Source of the DNA: Paraglaciecola arctica BSs20135
GTDB lineage: Bacteria > Pseudomonadota > Gammaproteobacteria > Enterobacterales > Alteromonadaceae
Assembly: GCF_000314995.1 (NCBI RefSeq)
Contig: NZ_BAEO01000031.1
Location: 62,001 to 126,000, forward strand
Length of the DNA stretch: 64,000 nt
Direction of reading: 5' to 3'
Below are positions 5,356 to 28,798 of the stretch, piece after piece. The position numbers were made by a program, and so were the translations under genes. How positions within the stretch are numbered: the first letter of the stretch is position 1; each line of letters opens with the position of its first letter. The notes beneath the pieces are model-generated. The model did not search any database, had not been told where the DNA came from, and worked only from the letters and a program-made list of their open reading frames with translations.

Positions 5356-5955
5356 ATGGAAAAGCAAAGTACCTTTATGGCCTGGATAACCAGAATGCCA
5401 TTACTTGAACGTTGGGCTTTAATGCACTGCTTTCAATCAGAAAATGTGTCAGAACATTGTCATCAAGTAGCGGTAATAGCTCACATGTTGGTGGTCATTA
5501 AAAACAAACGTTTTGGTGGATCACTGAACCCAGAAAGAGCGGCCACGCTAGCCCTGTACCATGAAGTATCAGAAACAAAATTACAGGACATGAACACTAA
5601 TACTAAATACCATAGTCCTGAATTTACTAAGGCCTTTAAGAAGCTTGAAGATTTGGCTGAAAAAGAATGTTTGGCTTCATTGCCTGAAGATTTGCGAGAT
5701 GAGCTACGCCCTCTTATTGTGCAGTCTGAAGTGCCTCCCGAATATAAAGAAATTGTAAAAGCAGCAGACATTTTACAAGCCTATATAAAAACACTTAATG
5801 AACTGCGCTTTAATAATGACGAATTTCAACATGTAGAAAAAAATCTTAGTGCAAAACTTCAAGAATTAAAACATTCAATGCCTGAAGTTAAGTGTTTTTT
5901 AGAAATATTTGTAGAAAGCTGCACTCTAACTCTTGATAAAATAATCAATATTTAA
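5356..5955 (+). CDS. yfbR: 5'-deoxynucleotidase YfbR (chromosomal copy)
   Basis: An HD-superfamily enzyme of 199 residues that dephosphorylates deoxynucleoside 5'-monophosphates. It sits 125 bp after alaA, the conserved order. The family blocks ENVSEHCHQVAVIAH (His near 33), the YHEVSE region near 68 and VKAADIL are present. In E. coli YfbR the second motif reads His-Asp; here the Asp is replaced by Glu (ALYHEVSETKLQD), while the later Glu and Asp are kept. The same change occurs in the island paralogue at 17621-18220. Activity on dNMPs is inferred from the family. Confidence 0.88.
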   Translation: MEKQSTFMAWITRMPLLERWALMHCFQSENVSEHCHQVAVIAHMLVVIKNKRFGGSLNPERAATLALYHEVSETKLQDMNTNTKYHSPEFTKAFKKLEDLAEKECLASLPEDLRDELRPLIVQSEVPPEYKEIVKAADILQAYIKTLNELRFNNDEFQHVEKNLSAKLQELKHSMPEVKCFLEIFVESCTLTLDKIINI

Positions 5956-16758: not shown

Positions 16759-17140
16759 GAAGTGGTTTCCTAGCGTTCACTCAACAGTAGACTGCAAACA
16801 TCCTGAATGTTGAATTAAGAAAATGAATATAGGTCGATTTTAAGGAAATAAAACTAAAACACCAGAATATATTATTCCAATAAATTAAAATTAGGATAAA
16901 TAAATATTAAAATTCACTTTAAAACCAATACACATTTTTCTACTTCACAGCTTTTTCTTTCGACATGTTACTAATCTCATGATTTCAATTGAAAAACCAA
17001 GCAATAAACTCACATCTAGCAGTCATTATGACCCATATGCTAATTACTATTAGAAGATGGCTTGATTAAATCAGCAGCATCTGGTCACATTAGCCTAAAT
17101 TATTGGCATTAAAAAATTCAGTTGGGAGCAAATATAATTT
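16759..17140. other. Intergenic gap upstream of dld and the truncated dgt
   Basis: A 382-bp AT-rich stretch between divergent genes. It should hold the promoters of dld and of the dgt remnant. GGGAG near 17122 is a possible ribosome-binding site for dgt. No coding remnant, RNA or clear repeat was seen. Confidence 0.5.
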
Positions 17141-17491
17141 ATGGATATTTGGATACAGCGCAGGCATGGACAGAAACTTCAACGCCAAGGTGATCATCGC
17201 ACCCCCTATCAAAGAGACAAGGCCAGAATATTACATTCAGCAGCATTTAGACGCCTGCAGGCCAAAACCCAAGTATTAGGCGTTGGCATGAGTGACTTTT
17301 ATCGCACTCGGCTAACACATTCATTAGAAGCATCACAAATTGGCCAAGGAATAGCGGCGCAGCTAAGAAGTAAGTACGCTGAATTAACCGAACATTTAGG
17401 TATGAATGACACCTTGATAGAGGCATTGTGTTTAGCTCATGATATCGGACATCCTCCTTACGCAATAAATCACGATAATTCGTATGTTTAA
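17141..17491 (+). pseudogene. dgt: dGTPase (HD-domain dNTP triphosphohydrolase), truncated at the HD motif
   Basis: The first about 107 residues are clearly a Dgt/dGTPase-like N-terminus: [40 protein letters not shown], and [13 protein letters not shown] with the HD pair. Full-length enzymes run on with FGHGGE and several hundred residues. Here the frame continues with unrelated AINHDNSYV and stops at 117 codons. The homology break is near 17460. The missing 3' portion is not seen anywhere in the window. The break coincides with the start of the accessory island, so an insertion or deletion cut the gene. It is almost certainly not functional as a dGTPase. Confidence 0.85.
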
Positions 17492-17620: not shown

Positions 17621-18220
17621 TTAAAATTCAGTCGGCATATCTTCAATATTTACTAAACAACGCTCAGCAAACATTTCCATAAATACTTCTACTTCTGGTA
17701 GCTCTGTTCTTAATTTGTTAATTTTTTCTTCAAGTCTTTGCTTAACAGCATTAAATTCAGGATTAAGAAATTTGATTTCGTCACATGCCTTTAAGTAAGC
17801 TGAAATCATATCTGCAGCTTTTACAATTTTCTTATATTCCGGATCAACGTTTTTCTGTATCAATAATTCACTGAAAATTGGTTGAAGATCCTCAGGAAGC
17901 GTTTTTAAACACTCTCTTTCCGTCAACTCTTCAATAGCTTTAAATTCTTTTGTTATTGCAGGATTGTGGTATTTTGTTACATGGATCACATCCTGTAATT
18001 TCGTCTCTGATACCTCATGATAAAGAGCAACTGTCGCTGCTTTTTCTGGGCAGATACTTCCCCCGCAATATGTATTCCTAATTGTTGCCAGCAAATGCGC
18101 AATAACGGCAACCTGGTGACTATGTTCAGCAACATTTTCCGGTTTTATCAAGTGCATAACAGCCCAACGCTGTATAAGCGGCATACGTAATATCCAAGCT
18201 AAAAATGAGCTTTTTATCAT
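17621..18220 (-). CDS. Second YfbR-type HD nucleotidase (island paralogue)
   Basis: The protein has 199 residues, the same length as the yfbR product at 5356-5955, and is clearly similar along its whole length (shared SENV/PENV-AEHSHQVAVIAH, ALYHEVSETKLQD, VKAAD). It is predicted to dephosphorylate deoxynucleoside monophosphates. It has the same HD-to-HE change as the core copy. The start at 18220 follows GGGAAG; an 11-codon upstream extension has no family counterpart. It is 93 bp downstream of the WYL regulator on the same strand and probably cotranscribed. Its island setting suggests a nucleotide-depletion role rather than housekeeping, which is inference. Confidence 0.82.
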   Translation of the reverse strand: MIKSSFLAWILRMPLIQRWAVMHLIKPENVAEHSHQVAVIAHLLATIRNTYCGGSICPEKAATVALYHEVSETKLQDVIHVTKYHNPAITKEFKAIEELTERECLKTLPEDLQPIFSELLIQKNVDPEYKKIVKAADMISAYLKACDEIKFLNPEFNAVKQRLEEKINKLRTELPEVEVFMEMFAERCLVNIEDMPTEF

Positions 18221-18313
18221 AGCGATACTTCCCAATTTTCTTAATATATTCAAAGCAATTTTTAATTTACTCCCGATGTATTTTAAATATACGTGGTAAT
18301 ATAATAAAAACTC

Positions 18314-21884: not shown

Positions 21885-21916
21885 CAATTCGTAATAATTG
21901 ACATTATTACGAATTG
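21885..21916. repeat. Perfect inverted repeat upstream of the recombinase
   Basis: The 14-bp arms CAATTCGTAATAAT and ATTATTACGAATTG are separated by TGAC. The repeat lies 33 bp before the integrase start. It could be an autoregulatory site, a recombinase core or arm site, or a stem in the leader RNA. Confidence 0.6.
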
Positions 21917-21949
21917 ACCAGGTGTGTTTGTGTGTGTACTCTACTTCCT

Positions 21950-23251
21950 ATGAAATATCATCCCATCACCGACACCATCAACTTATTGCCTCAGCAACGA
22001 GAATTATTAAACTCTTCAGAGTTCCCACATGTTTACCCTTCTTTGGATGAATACCTAACCAAAATGGAAGACAACGGCATTGCTGCGCGAAAAGATTTGG
22101 CATTGTTGCTTCACTTTCTTGTTAGCGTGGTGGGCAACTCAAAAGGCACACAAACCGGCTTTCGAAATGAAGCTGAGCGATTTATCTTGTTTTGCTGGAA
22201 CGAAAAGAAAAAGTCAATTTTAGATTTAGGTACGGAAGAAATCCGAGATTACATCGATTGGATTTGGTCACCGCCTAAAGCACTGATTTCTGATACCACC
22301 ATTGCTAGTCGCTTTAAAGCTAAGGCTGGTACTGATATACGCACTGTGAATAAAACCTGGCGACCATTTGTCCTTCGGCAGTCAAAAGCCAACCGTAAAA
22401 CCAATGAGCTCATTTCACCAGAGCGTTCAGCTTTAGATCAGCCTAAAAACCGCTACAGTCTTAATCAAACATCATTACAAAATTCTTATGCCTCCCTAAA
22501 TGTGTTTTTGAAGGAGCTATGGGAATCAGAACACATTGCCCGTAATCCAATCAGTTTGGTGAAGAAAAGCTGTAAGTACATGGTGAAAGGAAAGATCTAC
22601 AAGCCTCCACACACATTGGACGATGAAACCTGGCAGCTATTTGTGGATACGCTTACGCAGGCGGCCGATGAAAATCCTGCATACGAGATGCATCGATTTC
22701 TGGTTCTTACGCTAAAAGTGTTGTTTTTAAGGATATCAGAGCTGTCACATCGTGATTATTATACACCGATATTTGGCCATTTCAGACAAGACCCCAGCGG
22801 TGAAGGTTGGGTGTTGAACATCATTGGCAAAGGCAAAAAAGAACGCCTGGTAACTGTACCCGACGAATTTATCGACAATGTGCTAATTCGCTATCGAGAG
22901 TCGTTAGGGTTAACCCCCCTACCCCATATCGACGAAAACACGCCTATTATGCCATCACAAAAAACCGGTCAACCGCTTCATCAAGATAGCCTGAATAATA
23001 TGGTGGAAGAAGCATTTGATTTGGTGATCAAGTCGCTGGTTAAGAAAGAAAAAAAGCAACAGGCTCATGCCATTGCTGGTGCATCTTCCCATTGGTTAAG
23101 GCACACCGGTGCCACGCAGGCATTAGGTGAAATCAGCGAAACCATGTTAGCTGAAGAACTTGGCCATGCGAGTGTTAAGACGACAGTTGAGGTTTATGTT
23201 GCACCGGCACACAGGGATCGAATTAAAAAAGGTGTATCGAGAAAGCTATAG
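21950..23251 (+). CDS. Tyrosine recombinase / site-specific integrase
   Basis: A tyrosine recombinase of 433 residues. An N-terminal SAM-like core-binding region (LLLHFLVSVVGNSKGTQTGF, NEAERFILFCW) precedes the catalytic domain. Catalytic residues are visible: Arg in FLRISELSHRDY, the Lys of IGKGKKERLV, HWLRHTGAT (His and Arg), LGHASVKTT (His) and the nucleophile Tyr in VEVYVAP. The set is complete, so it is probably active. It likely mobilised the surrounding island. The ATG at 21950 is preferred; the frame is open from a TTG at 21914 inside the inverted repeat. Confidence 0.9.
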   Translation: MKYHPITDTINLLPQQRELLNSSEFPHVYPSLDEYLTKMEDNGIAARKDLALLLHFLVSVVGNSKGTQTGFRNEAERFILFCWNEKKKSILDLGTEEIRDYIDWIWSPPKALISDTTIASRFKAKAGTDIRTVNKTWRPFVLRQSKANRKTNELISPERSALDQPKNRYSLNQTSLQNSYASLNVFLKELWESEHIARNPISLVKKSCKYMVKGKIYKPPHTLDDETWQLFVDTLTQAADENPAYEMHRFLVLTLKVLFLRISELSHRDYYTPIFGHFRQDPSGEGWVLNIIGKGKKERLVTVPDEFIDNVLIRYRESLGLTPLPHIDENTPIMPSQKTGQPLHQDSLNNMVEEAFDLVIKSLVKKEKKQQAHAIAGASSHWLRHTGATQALGEISETMLAEELGHASVKTTVEVYVAPAHRDRIKKGVSRKL

Positions 23252-23482: not shown

Positions 23483-24457
23483 CTAGGAGTTGGATTTTTT
23501 GTGGTTTATTATTATCGACGTTACAACTAATTCTCCACTTGCCTTTACATCATGTGACTTACTTCTTTTATATTCAGAATAAATACAGCTAACATTTTTA
23601 AAAGATATTCCAGCTAATATGGACGCAAGTAGGTGTGGTTTAGGTCCAAACTGAACTACAGAAATGTTATAATGATCCTTAATAGGCCTAATTAATTGGC
23701 ACAAATTCTCAAATGTTTGAGAAACACTGAAAATTGGAGAACATAGTAAATTTTTAGCATCATTAAGTTGGTGTTGAATAAATTGGGCATTAATATCTCT
23801 AGCTTGCTGTTCGTAATTGGGTAAAGAACCGGGTGCTGAGAGCATGCCATAGGTTAAGTTCGGCTCAAGTAAATTATGAAAGCTCAACGGACCTATCTTA
23901 TCGAATCCCAACATAAAAATACCAGCAGTTTTACTTTTGGTTATAGATGAACCTTGACACCCAGGGAGTATTTTTACATCACCTAGTTCAAAATCTAAGA
24001 AACCGCTATTTATAGGGTACTCAGCACATGAGTAAACAAACGTTACTTCAACTGAATGTTCAAAGAAGTTAAATAAATAATTGAGTATTGCGGCATACCA
24101 GTTTCTCGACATAGATGAGTAATCTATTAATAGTTTATATGGTCTTGAATCTACAGCTACAAATTTTAATTTTTCAATTATGGCTTGGTACACCTTCTTA
24201 ACTTCGTTGTGATTTAAACTGAGTTTTTGATCATAACCAAAAGATTCAAACTTCTTTTCATTTTCTATTTGCGTAGGGTCTTCCTTACTTTCTTCATAAG
24301 AGAATACTAACGAGTCATTAACTCTAGTAGTACCAGAAAGTAAACTAGCTATATGAGTGCACCTAGGTTCATATCCAGAAGTCATTATCACCAAGTCATA
24401 TTCATTATTAATAAACTCAGAACGTGATAAATCGTTTATACGAATATTATTCATCAC
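23483..24457 (-). CDS. Unrecognised alpha/beta protein, third gene of the phosphoesterase-ATPase operon
   Basis: The protein has 324 residues and alternating hydrophobic strands. The start YDLVIMTSGYEPRCTHIASL and the middle segment KLLIDYSSMSRNWYAAILNY suggest a Rossmann-like fold. ISVVQFGPKPHLLASILAGI near the end could be a nucleotide- or sugar-binding turn. No catalytic set is recognised with confidence. It overlaps the ATPase gene by 11 bases, so its production is tied to the ATPase. Being last, it could be the effector, with the ATPase as sensor or loader; that is a hypothesis. Confidence 0.7.
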   Translation of the reverse strand: MMNNIRINDLSRSEFINNEYDLVIMTSGYEPRCTHIASLLSGTTRVNDSLVFSYEESKEDPTQIENEKKFESFGYDQKLSLNHNEVKKVYQAIIEKLKFVAVDSRPYKLLIDYSSMSRNWYAAILNYLFNFFEHSVEVTFVYSCAEYPINSGFLDFELGDVKILPGCQGSSITKSKTAGIFMLGFDKIGPLSFHNLLEPNLTYGMLSAPGSLPNYEQQARDINAQFIQHQLNDAKNLLCSPIFSVSQTFENLCQLIRPIKDHYNISVVQFGPKPHLLASILAGISFKNVSCIYSEYKRSKSHDVKASGELVVTSIIINHKKSNS

Positions 24458-26231
24458 TAAAAAGTCCCAATTGTTTATTACCCTTTTGAGGGGTCATGAC
24501 GTTAAAAAGGTCAATTGCTTTTCCAACTCGAGGAAAAAGATTAAAGTGCGGTGCTAGGCAATTTGCTAGGCAAAATGTTCCTTCTTTAATTGGAAATAAA
24601 TTTTTATGATTACTGTCTTTTTTCATTACGGGATACATTAAACCTAAATCAACAGCTGATTTTATAGCTTCCCAAGTTTGGTCTTCAATAGAATTTTTCA
24701 ACTTAATTGCTTGGGGTAAATCCGACCCAAGTTTTGTTTCCAGAGTTCTCTCCTTAAAAAATGAGCCTATTTTATTCAGGAAATCGAATGAGTTCTTTCC
24801 ACCTTTTTCGAACTTTATAACTTCAAGCTCGCTGTATGAAAAACTTTTAATTCTCTTACTTTGAGTTTCAGGAGTTATCTTTGTTGCATTTCCATTCAGC
24901 AAGTGATTAAAAAGTCTAAAGAGTCTTCTTGGATTTCCGTCGGAGCAACGAGATATTATAGATTTTCCGCTGTATAAAGGCGTATTACTACTACCAACGC
25001 GATTATGAAATTCATCTCTCAAAAGTAATATTCCTCTTAGCTTTCGCGATATTTCATCATTAAACCTATTTATATCTGTTTTATATAAACGTTTTGCTCT
25101 CTCTTTAGTTGCTGGATTACAGTGACTATCAATGAGTTTAAGTAACTCATCATTATCAGTTAATTTTGTAGTATCTTGAGATAATTTTGATAACCCCACT
25201 AAACCTTCAAGGCTTATGTCACCGATTTTAGTGAATTGTTTTAGACGATTTTCAAATAACTTTGTGGCAAACTTTTCAATCCTAGCATCAGAAGTGGTTT
25301 GATTCATATTGATGGTGCCGAGCTTATCGATATAGATATATTCAAGGTCATGACCTACATTTATATTAGCTTCAACGGTAGTAGAAAGAGTATGATGTCG
25401 ATAAGGCATTGTAGTTATTTTAAAGAAAATATCGTTAGCTGATCTCATGTGGGTATTAAGTATTTGATGGTGTACCTCAGCTAAAAATTCAGCCTCGTCT
25501 AAACAAAGCACCCATTTACTTGATTCAGGAATATCTAAATAATTTGCAATTGTCTTGGTAGCGATTGTGAACGGAGCAAACAGACTTCCATGAAAAGAAA
25601 TTCCGAGCATTTTATCCTCTTCACCTAACTCTATTCCCATTGACTCTTTATTGAAAATTAGGTTTTTCCTATATTCAATAATTTCAAGTTCTTTACGAAA
25701 ATCAGAAAAATTATTAATGATTTTTGGTAACGTCCATAAGATTGAAAGTTGTTTACAAATTTTTCTTTGCATTAAAGTTGCTTTAACTTCACCTTCAATG
25801 TACTCCTCAGTACAACTAATAATTGTATCTAGCAATCTGGCACATGTTGCTAAATTTAAACTCCACGTGAAGTATGCTTCTTTGGATCCTTCATAATTCT
25901 CGAGGGAGTTAATCCATTCAACTTTTAAAGGTACGTATGTTGCGATAAAGCTTTTTTCTCTAATTACTTTTTTAGCTTCTTCAATCTGTCTAAATTCTTC
26001 ATTATCTTCATTATCTATTACTTTAACTGAAAGCTTCCTTAAATTTTGATGCGATAACATCTTTATTAATGCAGTCTTCCCAGAGCCTCTTGATCCTAAA
26101 ACCATTTGATTTTTTGTCGAATATAAAAGGTCACTAAATGAATCAGTCCAGATAAATTCATTTACTAATTGGTGAGATGTAAAATCACGAGCGTTAGAAG
26201 CTTCGAATGCATTTTTGAAACTTGAGCTCAC
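24447..26231 (-). CDS. P-loop ATPase (ORC/CDC6-like AAA), middle gene of the operon
   Basis: An ATPase of 594 residues. Walker A is GSRGSGKT (residues about 46-53) and Walker B is WVLCLDEAEFL (about 240-250). An insert of some 180 residues lies between them, and the C-terminal half may hold a winged helix. The layout resembles ORC/CDC6-type STAND or AAA ATPases of defence islands. It starts with GTG, whose G is also the last base of the upstream TAG stop. AAGGAGG sits about eight bases ahead, so the start is secure and translation is coupled. Confidence 0.8.
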   Translation of the reverse strand: MSSSFKNAFEASNARDFTSHQLVNEFIWTDSFSDLLYSTKNQMVLGSRGSGKTALIKMLSHQNLRKLSVKVIDNEDNEEFRQIEEAKKVIREKSFIATYVPLKVEWINSLENYEGSKEAYFTWSLNLATCARLLDTIISCTEEYIEGEVKATLMQRKICKQLSILWTLPKIINNFSDFRKELEIIEYRKNLIFNKESMGIELGEEDKMLGISFHGSLFAPFTIATKTIANYLDIPESSKWVLCLDEAEFLAEVHHQILNTHMRSANDIFFKITTMPYRHHTLSTTVEANINVGHDLEYIYIDKLGTINMNQTTSDARIEKFATKLFENRLKQFTKIGDISLEGLVGLSKLSQDTTKLTDNDELLKLIDSHCNPATKERAKRLYKTDINRFNDEISRKLRGILLLRDEFHNRVGSSNTPLYSGKSIISRCSDGNPRRLFRLFNHLLNGNATKITPETQSKRIKSFSYSELEVIKFEKGGKNSFDFLNKIGSFFKERTLETKLGSDLPQAIKLKNSIEDQTWEAIKSAVDLGLMYPVMKKDSNHKNLFPIKEGTFCLANCLAPHFNLFPRVGKAIDLFNVMTPQKGNKQLGLFSDE

Positions 26232-27463
26232 TATAAATCCTCCTTCATAATCATAAAATCACCATCTCTCTTCATTGGACAATATTCCCAACCTTCTTCT
26301 AAGCAAGTTTCTTTGATTGCATTTTCGCGGAGGTTTAAGTTGCAGTATTTCATTTCAGGTTTTTTAACTAAAAAAGAAGACCACCTAAAAAAATCATTCA
26401 CAAGTAGATGAGTTTGTATTTCAGCTCTAAATTCATTTTTTAAGACGCTCTTGTTTCTGACATCACCAAAAAACTCTACATGACTTATATAGTCCCTCGA
26501 TTTATCCGCAGTTATCCACCCATTATTATCAAAATATGCCCATGATATTACTTTACCAAGAATATTTTTGTTTGTGGGGCACTTACCTTCTACATCTATT
26601 ATATGAAAGAAGTTACCAACTCCGTTATGATAGTCTTTTAGAGAGGCACTAAAACTCCCTGAAGATAGTGTAACTATAGGAAAATTATTAGCGTCCGAAT
26701 GAATATCAAACCTAGGTATATGTTTATGACCATGTACGATTACATCAAATTCTTTTTCAGTCGCTAATCGAAGAAAATAATCAGCATTTTGCATAATACT
26801 ATAATCATTTTCTGGAAAAGTTCTGTCGGCAAGATTTTTAGGATGATGGTGTGTAATAAGTACTTTCAATTTTCCACTTGTATCAAGTTCAGACAATTTT
26901 AATTTAAGAATATCTAGCTCTTTCAAGTTTACCAAACCATGATGTAAATCATTAATGGCTAGATCATTTGCAGATGAATTGACACCAACAACTACAAGTT
27001 CTTTATCCATCCAAATTGAACCAAAGGGACTTTTATACATGTCTTTAAACTGAGCATTATCGAGTAAGGTAGAAAAAAATGGATGTTGTTCTATGTTGGT
27101 GTATTTTTTTGAAATGCTTAACGCAAGAGGTTCTTTATTTGCAATAGATATTCGTTCTTCATCCCAATTACCATCGTGGTTGCCAGGGACAAAGAAAATT
27201 TTGTTTTTATCTACATTGAGTTTTTTTGCTAATTTTTGAATATTGCATGCGGCTAACTCAAATTCTTCATAAGTTGCACTTTGAGTTATGTCACCAGCGA
27301 TCAATATATGAGTAACTTCTAACTGATTTTTATCGACCAAATCATCAAACTCTTTTAGATAATCAGGAGTATTACGGCACGCCATATCGTCAGGCGCAGT
27401 CGAAAAGTCCTGAGCTCTTGCTTTAGGGCCGACATGCAGATCACTGATTACCAATAGTTTCAT
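26231..27463 (-). CDS. Calcineurin-like metallophosphoesterase, first gene of the operon
   Basis: A protein of 410 residues with all five metallophosphoesterase motifs: DLH (residues 8-10), GD (57-58), GNHD (94-97), THHHP and HGHKH. The catalytic domain occupies about residues 1-290. A C-terminal extension of some 120 residues with no recognised fold follows, and may contact the ATPase. It lacks a signal peptide, so it acts in the cytosol, on a nucleotide, nucleic acid or signalling phosphodiester. It leads a tight operon with the ATPase and the 324-residue protein. Confidence 0.85.
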   Translation of the reverse strand: MKLLVISDLHVGPKARAQDFSTAPDDMACRNTPDYLKEFDDLVDKNQLEVTHILIAGDITQSATYEEFELAACNIQKLAKKLNVDKNKIFFVPGNHDGNWDEERISIANKEPLALSISKKYTNIEQHPFFSTLLDNAQFKDMYKSPFGSIWMDKELVVVGVNSSANDLAINDLHHGLVNLKELDILKLKLSELDTSGKLKVLITHHHPKNLADRTFPENDYSIMQNADYFLRLATEKEFDVIVHGHKHIPRFDIHSDANNFPIVTLSSGSFSASLKDYHNGVGNFFHIIDVEGKCPTNKNILGKVISWAYFDNNGWITADKSRDYISHVEFFGDVRNKSVLKNEFRAEIQTHLLVNDFFRWSSFLVKKPEMKYCNLNLRENAIKETCLEEGWEYCPMKRDGDFMIMKEDL

Positions 27464-27919: not shown

Positions 27920-28798
27920 TTATTGGTCTAAAACTTCGCTAATTTTATCTAAATCACATGTTCTAATTTTATCTATTGTGATACCAATGTTTACGAGGGA
28001 CCCTCTATGCTTTTCACATTCACTTGTTGAATAGCAACTCACAACCCATTCTGCTGATGGGTTAAATTCAAATATTCTTTTAAAATATGGCATATCTACT
28101 GAATTTAGAGAGTGGCCGAGTACTACAATACAGTCAATATCAGTTAAGGAATCAAACCAGTGTGAAAGGTTATCGATAATGAATTCAACTGGTTTTTTTA
28201 AAGCGGCTAAGGGTTTTCTCGCTGCATTTTCTGCATCATGAAAATATTTGCTATTACTATAGCCATCTTCATCGAACTCAGACGGTTCCATTCTCATACT
28301 ACAATGCCCAAAAATTAATTTTTCACGCGTATCTACATTCCCATGAATATGCTTAACGTGGCCATGGGGCACCTTGTAAACACTTTGCAGAGTATTAGTA
28401 TAGTTAAATGAGAGGAACTTAGATTCTGGTATGAAACACATTTTAGGGCTAACATTAGTTATATCAATTGAGTTCACCCACGACTCAAATTCACTTGTAA
28501 TATCAGACACCAAACTTTCTGTTTGCTCTGTAATCCCATCTTCTAAACCATAAACATAACTTGATCGAAAAGATTCACTACTTAAATTAGGCTGCTCATA
28601 TTCGCAATACAGTAACTCCCAATCATATTCTCCTAAATTGTTTTCGAAATCACTCCAAGGCTCAGTAACACCACTTTGTTCAAAAAAATATTTATATTGA
28701 TCCAGAGTTTGCTTTGAGTATTTATAAAAATCACAGTAGCTCGTAGGAAGACCATGCCATCGATCAAATCCATTTCCTATTATATACAACACATTCAT
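27920..28798 (-). CDS. AbiH family abortive-infection protein
   Basis: A protein of 292 residues with the AbiH family pattern. The N-terminal VLYIIGNGFDRWHGLPTSY block, the central FLSFNYTNTLQSVYKVP block with VKHIHG, and VVLGHSLNSVDMPYF toward the end all match. AbiH, first described in Lactococcus, blocks phage propagation; its mechanism is poorly defined. It stands alone on the minus strand, between gaps of 456 and 784 bp, beside the recombinase and the two uncharacterised cassettes, which supports reading this region as a defence island. Confidence 0.88.
   Translation of the reverse strand: MNVLYIIGNGFDRWHGLPTSYCDFYKYSKQTLDQYKYFFEQSGVTEPWSDFENNLGEYDWELLYCEYEQPNLSSESFRSSYVYGLEDGITEQTESLVSDITSEFESWVNSIDITNVSPKMCFIPESKFLSFNYTNTLQSVYKVPHGHVKHIHGNVDTREKLIFGHCSMRMEPSEFDEDGYSNSKYFHDAENAARKPLAALKKPVEFIIDNLSHWFDSLTDIDCIVVLGHSLNSVDMPYFKRIFEFNPSAEWVVSCYSTSECEKHRGSLVNIGITIDKIRTCDLDKISEVLDQ

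What the first reader, a model, noticed from the sequence alone, without database searches (positions are those of the whole stretch)
23483..27463. Phosphoesterase-ATPase-unknown operon: candidate undescribed defence system
Three genes overlap tightly: a five-motif calcineurin-like phosphoesterase with an extra C-terminal region, a P-loop ATPase with a large insert between Walker motifs, and a 324-residue unrecognised alpha/beta protein. The overlaps (TAGTG and 11 bases) imply fixed stoichiometry. The operon lies between a tyrosine recombinase and an AbiH gene. I do not match the triad to a named defence system; that it is one is inference from synteny.
Basis: partly seen in the sequence, partly recalled or inferred. 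Interest (0 to 1): 0.8.

Follow-up and report, generated by a model that had tools for sequence, protein, structure and literature searches.

The report
Phosphoesterase–ATPase–CARF6 antiviral operon
This bacterial three-gene operon looks like a phage-sensing defence device, in which a DNA-type ATPase and a nucleotide-sensor protein probably switch on an enzyme that destroys nucleotides; its parts were largely predicted before and its action has still to be tested.

Summary
The three overlapping genes are real, at the stated coordinates. The 'unrecognised' third protein matches PADLOC's CARF6 model over its full length (E 6e-147); fold search supports CARF domains, though weakly. The ATPase is Pfam ORC-CDC6-like (E 1e-103) and the phosphoesterase carries wHTH-Calcineurin_assc.

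The triad recurs. CARF6 follows, or is fused to, the ATPase in 22 of 25 loci. The effector slot swaps between phosphoesterase, PRTase-CE, HD-CE and kinase; several loci add a DNA methyltransferase. The closest relative has the same three genes and 11-base overlap in a P2-like prophage between gpA and gpQ, a published defence hotspot (PMC9122126). The phosphoesterase is related to the tested DS-9A and, as a model, resembles SMPDL3A.

Verdict: very probably a defence operon, of a kind mostly predicted in silico; ligand and substrate unknown. New points: the missing methyltransferase, the prophage-hotspot cassette, and its place in a ~72-kb element that splits host dgt.

The parts
26231..27463 (-). 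Effector candidate: calcineurin-like phosphoesterase (410 aa) with C-terminal winged helix domain
   Evidence: PF00149 E 3.8e-16 and PF24408 wHTH-Calcineurin_assc 331-387 E 5.5e-14; NF053862 DS9_1_antiphage 108 bits, below its cut-off of 420; AlphaFold model (pLDDT 68) best matched to SMPDL3A/B and acid sphingomyelinase in the PDB; five motifs intact
24447..26231 (-). ORC-CDC6-like AAA+ ATPase (594 aa) with an Arg inside the P-loop (GSRGSGKT)
   Evidence: PF24389 full length E 1.1e-103, 348.5 bits, cut-off 27; P-loop Arg in 18 of 21 ATPases compared, this one included
23483..24457 (-). CARF6-clade sensor candidate (324 aa)
   Evidence: PDLC01912 CARF6 residues 3-317, E 6.1e-147; AlphaFold model pLDDT 80.9, pTM 0.83; Foldseek matches to Cam1, Can2, Csm6 and a ring nuclease at probability 0.92-1.00 but E 1.4e-3 or weaker, and to SAVED Cap5 over 318 columns at probability 0.69
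27920..28798 (-). AbiH gene next door: separate defence-type neighbour, not part of the operon
   Evidence: PF14253 E 1.8e-55; not found by phmmer in the other 24 loci
21914..23251 (+). Tyrosine recombinase of the surrounding mobile element
   Evidence: PF00589 E 6.9e-08; phrog_216 integrase
17141..17464 (+). N-terminal fragment of host dgt: left boundary of a ~72-kb inserted element that carries the operon
   Evidence: Similarity to a relative's dgt ends at window 17464; the C-terminal part lies at C42:151675-152658

Best explanation
A mobile anti-phage operon in which an ORC-CDC6-like ATPase and a CARF6 protein form the sensing and switching core, and the calcineurin-like phosphoesterase is one of several interchangeable effectors. 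Most likely mechanism (inferred): the ATPase assembles on DNA or on a phage product, CARF6 binds a nucleotide ligand made or released during infection, and ATP-driven rearrangement unleashes the phosphoesterase, which breaks phosphate bonds in nucleotides (or in a nucleotide messenger), stopping phage growth by nucleotide depletion or abortive infection. Shown here: the gene set, its conservation, effector swapping, intact catalytic motifs, the CARF6 sequence match, CARF-type and SMPDL3A-type fold matches of medium strength, and the prophage-hotspot location of the closest relative. Inferred: complex formation, trigger, ligand, substrate, outcome.
For: CARF6 is the next gene downstream of, or fused to, the ATPase in 22 of 25 loci; loci had been picked by the ATPase or phosphoesterase, not by CARF6. 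Of the 3 without, in two (L043, L068) the ATPase frame runs to the end of the contig. The profile was iterated on these same loci; the un-iterated four-seed profile already found 18, and all 14 third proteins scanned against PADLOC match CARF6 models. The upstream gene or fused N-terminal domain is a phosphoesterase (8), PRTase-CE (6), HD-CE (3), kinase (3), ParA-like (1) or undetermined (3) among 24 distinct loci. The closest relative, L069, has the same triad with the same 11-base overlap between a gpA-type nickase (phrog_91) and the portal (phrog_68) of a P2-like prophage; this site is a known defence hotspot (PMC9122126, passages read). DS-9A, to whose family the phosphoesterase is related at 108 bits, loses defence when its metallophosphatase residues are mutated (PMC13092281, passages read). 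The phosphoesterase model's 11 best PDB matches are SMPDL3A/B or acid sphingomyelinase; no Mre11 or SbcD is among the 50 listed of 823. Mobile context: plasmids and a ~72-kb element in dgt.
Against: No experiment. No nucleotide-messenger synthase was seen in the operon; the host genome has no SMODS CD-NTase hit, and the Cas10-palm search gave nine hits, two or three of them over the curated cut-off, the two best being GGEEF proteins, so the source of a CARF6 ligand is unknown. In the CARF6 fold search the three matches with E under 0.001 are non-CARF proteins (probability 0.85-0.95, TM 0.23-0.27), and the CARF matches cover only part of the protein. The phosphoesterase model is of medium quality (pLDDT 68, TM about 0.45), and its winged helix could mean that DNA is the substrate. 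The system is rare: PDLC01912 in 1 of 398 and 1 of 148 genomes, the window's own each time.
Confidence: 0.62

Rival explanations
1. Restriction-like system: ATPase plus CARF6 read DNA methylation, and the phosphoesterase with its winged helix is a DNA nuclease that cuts unmethylated DNA; the methyltransferase is supplied by the operon or by host Dam.
For: Five of eight phosphoesterase-type loci carry an operon Dam-family methyltransferase, all five over the TIGR00571 cut-off; loci with other effectors carry N6, C5 or N4/N6 methyltransferases; the phosphoesterase has a winged helix; ORC-type ATPases act on DNA (general knowledge; PMC10853773 passages).
Against: The window, L069 and L058 have no methyltransferase beside the genes by my D12 and N6 profiles, and no remnant is detectable in the window (best tblastn E 0.15). 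The fold match is to SMPDL3A, not Mre11/SbcD. The same slot is filled by PRTase-CE and HD-CE domains, which are not known as restriction nucleases (recalled).
Confidence: 0.2
2. The phosphoesterase is an off-switch that destroys the CARF6 ligand, like a ring nuclease, and the toxic activity lies in the ATPase or elsewhere.
For: CARF domains often come with ring nucleases (general knowledge); SMPDL3A cleaves cGAMP (stated in PMC13092281); fold match to SMPDL3A.
Against: PRTase-CE, HD-CE or a kinase takes the same position in other loci, which fits an effector better than a ligand-specific off-switch. Catalytic residues of the related DS-9A are needed for defence.
Confidence: 0.1
3. Cargo of the mobile element with a non-defence role, such as element maintenance or regulation of transfer.
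For: Sits near one end of a ~72-kb element with recombinases and metal-resistance-type genes and on plasmids in other species.
Against: Also sits as a three-gene cassette in a P2-like prophage at the defence hotspot; the components match defence libraries.
Confidence: 0.08

Closest known systems
ORC-CDC6-like / PRTase-CE / HD-CE / Calcineurin nucleotide-targeting systems (Pfam PF24389, PF24390, PF24391, PF24408; source paper recalled as Nicastro et al. 2023, NAR, not readable here)
   Same: ATPase family over cut-off, matching winged helix, and relatives with the other two effectors in the same slot
   Different: Whether that paper describes exactly this triad with CARF6 could not be read; the window member has no methyltransferase
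Fused Zn-ribbon, kinase, AAA+ and CARF proteins (PMC4012209, section 7 read)
   Same: AAA+ with an Arg inside the P-loop upstream of a CARF; L063 is a kinase-ATPase-CARF6 fusion of that kind
   Different: Separate genes here; effector is a phosphoesterase, not a kinase
DS-9 (DefensePredictor, PMC13092281, passages read)
   Same: Related metallophosphatase (108 bits), whose catalytic residues are needed for defence
   Different: DS-9 is a two-gene system with a HAD phosphatase; the window protein is far below the family cut-off and its partners are an ORC-like ATPase and CARF6
P2 gpA-gpQ hotspot cassettes (old/tin and others, PMC9122126, passages read)
   Same: The closest relative L069 occupies this site
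   Different: Different genes; the window copy lies in another kind of element
CBASS and type III CRISPR CARF/SAVED effectors
   Same: CARF-type sensor by sequence model and, more weakly, by fold
   Different: No cyclase or Cas10 beside the operon; sensor and effector are separate proteins with an ATPase between them

Membership tests
ORC-CDC6-like ATPase (PF24389) | Match over the curated cut-off along the whole model | tested here: met
   348.5 bits, cut-off 27, model 1-571
CARF superfamily, CARF6 clade | Full-length match to a CARF6 sequence model | tested here: met
   PDLC01912 residues 3-317, E 6.1e-147
CARF superfamily, CARF6 clade | CARF-type fold | tested here: inconclusive
   Probability 0.92-1.00 to Cam1, Can2, Csm6 and a ring nuclease, but E 1.4e-3 or weaker over part of the protein; three non-CARF proteins have lower E
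CARF superfamily, CARF6 clade | Binds a (cyclic) oligonucleotide ligand | not testable with these tools
   Needs binding assays
Calcineurin-like phosphoesterase with wHTH | Five metal-binding motifs plus PF24408 | tested here: met
Calcineurin-CE nucleotide-targeting systems (definition recalled) | Effector interchangeable with PRTase-CE and HD-CE beside the same core | tested here: met
   Six PRTase-CE loci (five by Pfam, L056 by own profile) and three HD-CE loci with the same ATPase-CARF6 pair
Calcineurin-CE nucleotide-targeting systems (definition recalled) | Nucleotide-degrading activity | not testable with these tools
   Needs biochemistry
DS-9 | Score over the NF053862 cut-off (420) and a HAD phosphatase partner | tested here: not met
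   108 bits; the operon's other two proteins are an ORC-CDC6-like ATPase and CARF6
CBASS | CD-NTase | tested here: not met
   No SMODS (PF18144) match in the whole genome at E 0.001; none among the ten proteins of the neighbourhood scanned
Type III CRISPR accessory | Cas10 in the genome | tested here: inconclusive
   Nine PF22335 hits, best E 1.4e-6; the best two lie in GGEEF-bearing frames; seven not examined; CRISPR arrays not searched
Restriction-modification | Linked DNA methyltransferase | tested here: not met
   None among the neighbours scanned, no remnant; a Dam-like gene lies elsewhere in the genome

The most novel reading that the evidence does not exclude
Phosphoesterase-type ORC/CARF6 systems read adenine methylation of the Dam kind as the 'self' mark. 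In hosts thought to lack Dam (recalled for the alpha- and betaproteobacterial hosts of L032, L033, L034, L044) the operon brings its own Dam-family enzyme; in hosts with a chromosomal Dam (the window genome has a Dam-like gene, and the host of the L069 prophage probably does) the operon has shed it and borrows host Dam in trans. It would be a methylation-gated nucleotide-destroying immune switch rather than a restriction enzyme.
Probability: 0.18. Interest if true: 0.75.

Novelty: new member of a known kind. Interest (0 to 1): 0.5.

Why it matters
It links four separately named things (orphan CARF6 sensors, ORC-CDC6-like ATPases, nucleotide-targeting effectors and the DS-9-type metallophosphatase) into one modular architecture with a constant two-gene core, and supplies a compact three-gene, methyltransferase-free version from a prophage hotspot that is simple to clone. 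If the mechanism holds, it makes testable what a CARF outside CRISPR and CBASS senses, and whether DNA-type ATPases can gate nucleotide destruction.

Tried and rejected
Searches that led nowhere: single-protein scan of viral contigs with the ATPase; tblastn against phage records with CARF6 and two ATPases; plasmid tblastn with CARF6; DNA search of the L069 triad in E. coli genomes. A PF24408 scan of 190 genomes found 0, but rang in no control either, so it says nothing. A class scan around G313 found 1 of 48, itself. The Foldseek viral library gave no match at E 0.001 for CARF6. One search read only one locus file and was repeated.

Rows left out or counted as misses: L065 (short ATPase match) has no CARF6 and was kept as a miss. 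L059 is almost the same as L058 and was left out of the 24 'distinct' loci; it is in the 25. L042, L043 and L065 have no effector assigned. L056 was classed by my own profile, L041's methyltransferase by likeness to L040, not by Pfam. L058's phosphoesterase has no PF24408 match. The plasmid hits H2, H4, H8 and H10 were not fetched; H9 (L035) was fetched and its ORFs listed but it was not scanned for the core and is not counted. Searches count the window's own genome among their hits.

Rejected: 'unrecognised third protein' (it is CARF6); AbiH as a part of the system; Mre11/SbcD-type nuclease as first choice. Considered, not settled: a methyltransferase in trans (probability given in the section on the most novel reading). 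The motif R..GxFNVP shared by the five operon methyltransferases and the genome's own Dam-like protein is compatible with a Dam-like target, but the link of that motif to GATC is recalled, not tested; the five also lie far below the cut-off of the housekeeping model PRK10904 (84-119 bits against 441).
Full report
OBSERVATION. All five metallophosphoesterase motifs are intact and the ATPase has about 190 residues between its Walker motifs. Neighbours are a tyrosine recombinase and AbiH. The triad is AT-rich (G+C 0.32-0.34 in 1-kb steps) against 0.39-0.41 left of the element and about 0.50 at 30.5-33 kb.

IDENTITY OF THE PARTS. Against Pfam the ATPase is ORC-CDC6-like from end to end (E 1.1e-103), and the phosphoesterase has Metallophos (3.8e-16) plus a C-terminal wHTH-Calcineurin_assc domain (5.5e-14); the third protein has no Pfam match. 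Against PADLOC the third protein matches CARF6 over residues 3-317 (E 6.1e-147). Against NCBIfam the phosphoesterase is nearest to the anti-phage phosphoesterase DS9_1 (108 bits, far under the cut-off of 420). No PDB sequence relative was found by phmmer for the phosphoesterase (E up to 0.01) or CARF6 (E up to 1), and only a chance-level one for the ATPase (E 0.65).

STRUCTURE. The CARF6 model (three aligned sequences) has pLDDT 80.9 and pTM 0.83. CARF domains dominate its high-probability PDB matches: Cam1 with cA4 or cA6, Can2, Csm6 and ring nuclease Sso2081 at 0.92-1.00, with E of 1.4e-3 or weaker and over part of the protein; SAVED-type Cap5 matches over 318 columns at probability 0.69. 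Against this, the three matches with E under 0.001 are a KCC1 transporter, a universal stress protein and a cation-chloride cotransporter domain, at probability 0.85-0.95 and TM 0.23-0.27. So the fold search supports CARF but does not prove it; the sequence model is the stronger evidence. The phosphoesterase model is weaker (pLDDT 68, pTM 0.70); its 11 best matches are SMPDL3A, SMPDL3B or acid sphingomyelinase (E 5e-7 to 4e-6, TM 0.41-0.46), and no Mre11 or SbcD is among the 50 listed of 823. The DefensePredictor paper compares DS-8 to SMPDL3A, calls the DS-9 metallophosphatase homologous to that of DS-8, and reports loss of defence in DS-9A catalytic mutants (PMC13092281, passages read).

RELATIVES. 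Plasmids of Sinorhizobium meliloti, Methylobacterium and Cupriavidus, and a Paucibacter contig, carry methyltransferase - phosphoesterase - ATPase - CARF6 as tight operons. A Moraxella plasmid carries PRTase-CE - ATPase - CARF6 - N6 methyltransferase. Genome scans gave more: PF24389 over cut-off in 8 of 274 genomes of the class and 11 of 398 of the phylum, the window's own genome counted in both; all of these places were looked at. In 25 loci examined (353 ORFs, window included), CARF6 is the next gene downstream on the same strand, or fused, in 22. The profile behind this count was iterated on these loci; without iteration it found 18. The three misses are L043 and L068, where the ATPase frame runs to the end of the contig, and L065, a true miss with only a short ATPase match. 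Among 24 distinct loci the effector is phosphoesterase 8, PRTase-CE 6, HD-CE 3, kinase fusion 3, ParA-like fusion 1, undetermined 3. All 14 third proteins scanned match CARF6 models. [quoted passage not shown] On the ATPase tree seven of the eight phosphoesterase-type loci form one starred group; L058, on a long branch whose place is unsure, falls outside; the four effector labels together need 4 changes (least possible 3) against a shuffled mean of 10.4. So effector and core mostly travel together.

PROPHAGE HOTSPOT. L069, the closest relative (phosphoesterase 37%, ATPase 47%, CARF6 39% identity), has the same three genes without a methyltransferase and the same 11-base ATPase/CARF6 overlap. 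Upstream are phage regulators and the gpA-type nickase (phrog_91); downstream are a 242-aa protein, a radical SAM gene, then portal (phrog_68) and terminase genes on the other strand. Its portal and terminase region resembles P2-like phages, with matches in 257 of 50,697 phage records. Rousset et al. place the P2 defence hotspot, with old and tin, between gpA and gpQ (PMC9122126, passages read).

METHYLTRANSFERASE. Five of the eight phosphoesterase-type loci (L032, L033, L034, L044, L068) carry a Dam-family methyltransferase over the TIGR00571 cut-off, though far below the housekeeping model PRK10904. The window, L069 and L058 do not, by my D12 and N6 profiles; the window has no remnant (best tblastn E 0.15). 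The window genome has one Dam-like gene elsewhere (28% identity to L068's enzyme) sharing R..GxFNVP with the operon enzymes. A methyltransferase acting in trans is possible; the sample is small, the Dam status of the other hosts is recalled or unknown, and L058 may count against it.

CONTEXT IN THE GENOME. The host dgt gene is cut: codons 5-113 lie at C42:79138-79464 (window 17138-17464) and codons 111-441 at C42:151675-152658. All 24 other genomes of the family searched have a dgt match; the 23 with a close match (E 1.3e-31 or better) have open frames of 432-471 aa, and in G948 only a distant match (E 7e-10, 510 aa) was found. About 72 kb is therefore inserted, and the operon lies 6-10 kb from its left end, with a second yfbR-like gene, a WYL-like protein, a recombinase and AbiH. 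The rest holds a heavy-metal P-type ATPase, a second phage-type integrase and other genes that look by eye like metal efflux. No tRNA gene was found in the window. Searches of the genome for a CARF ligand source: no SMODS; nine Cas10-palm hits, best E 1.4e-6, of which the best two are GGEEF proteins and seven were not examined.

MECHANISM. Best reading: ATPase plus CARF6 form a sensor and switch, the phosphoesterase attacks nucleotides. The swap with PRTase-CE and HD-CE argues that the slot is an effector. Ligand, trigger and substrate are unknown. Rivals are a methylation-reading nuclease, an off-switch phosphodiesterase, and non-defence cargo.

NOVELTY. The parts and probably most of the architecture were predicted before. 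Pfam's accession run PF24389-24391 and PF24408 points to one source paper, recalled as Nicastro et al. 2023; it could not be read. In the listings of ten literature searches, some of them cut short, I saw no experimental test of the triad. I therefore file it as a new member of a known, mostly predicted kind, with the prophage-hotspot cassette and the missing methyltransferase as the new points.

Noticed in passing
window 17141-17464 and onward; C42:79138-152658: Host dGTPase gene dgt is split by an inserted element of about 72 kb; the 24 other genomes of the family searched have dgt matches in uninterrupted frames.
   Followed up: yes
window 17621-18253 versus 5362-5940: Two yfbR-like 5'-deoxynucleotidase genes: one at the native place, a second diverged one just inside the element, beside a WYL-like protein.
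   Followed up: partly
L087 206-6585: Three large overlapping minus-strand genes (945, 784, 410 aa) at the right end of the element have no Pfam match; perhaps its mobility genes.
   Followed up: partly
L069 9527-11145: A 242-aa protein without a match and a radical SAM protein share the P2 hotspot with the triad; a possible second defence cassette.
   Followed up: partly
L063 7494-11213: Single 1239-aa protein with kinase, ORC-CDC6-like ATPase and CARF6, near what look by eye like C5 methyltransferase genes.
   Followed up: no
L061 11032-12975: A HAD-type phosphatase gene (Pfam Hydrolase_3) lies next to a PRTase-CE type system; DS-9 also pairs with a HAD phosphatase.
   Followed up: no
L036 2116-4979: On the Moraxella plasmid a NACHT protein and a dUTP diphosphatase sit just upstream of the PRTase-CE system, on the same strand.
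   Followed up: no
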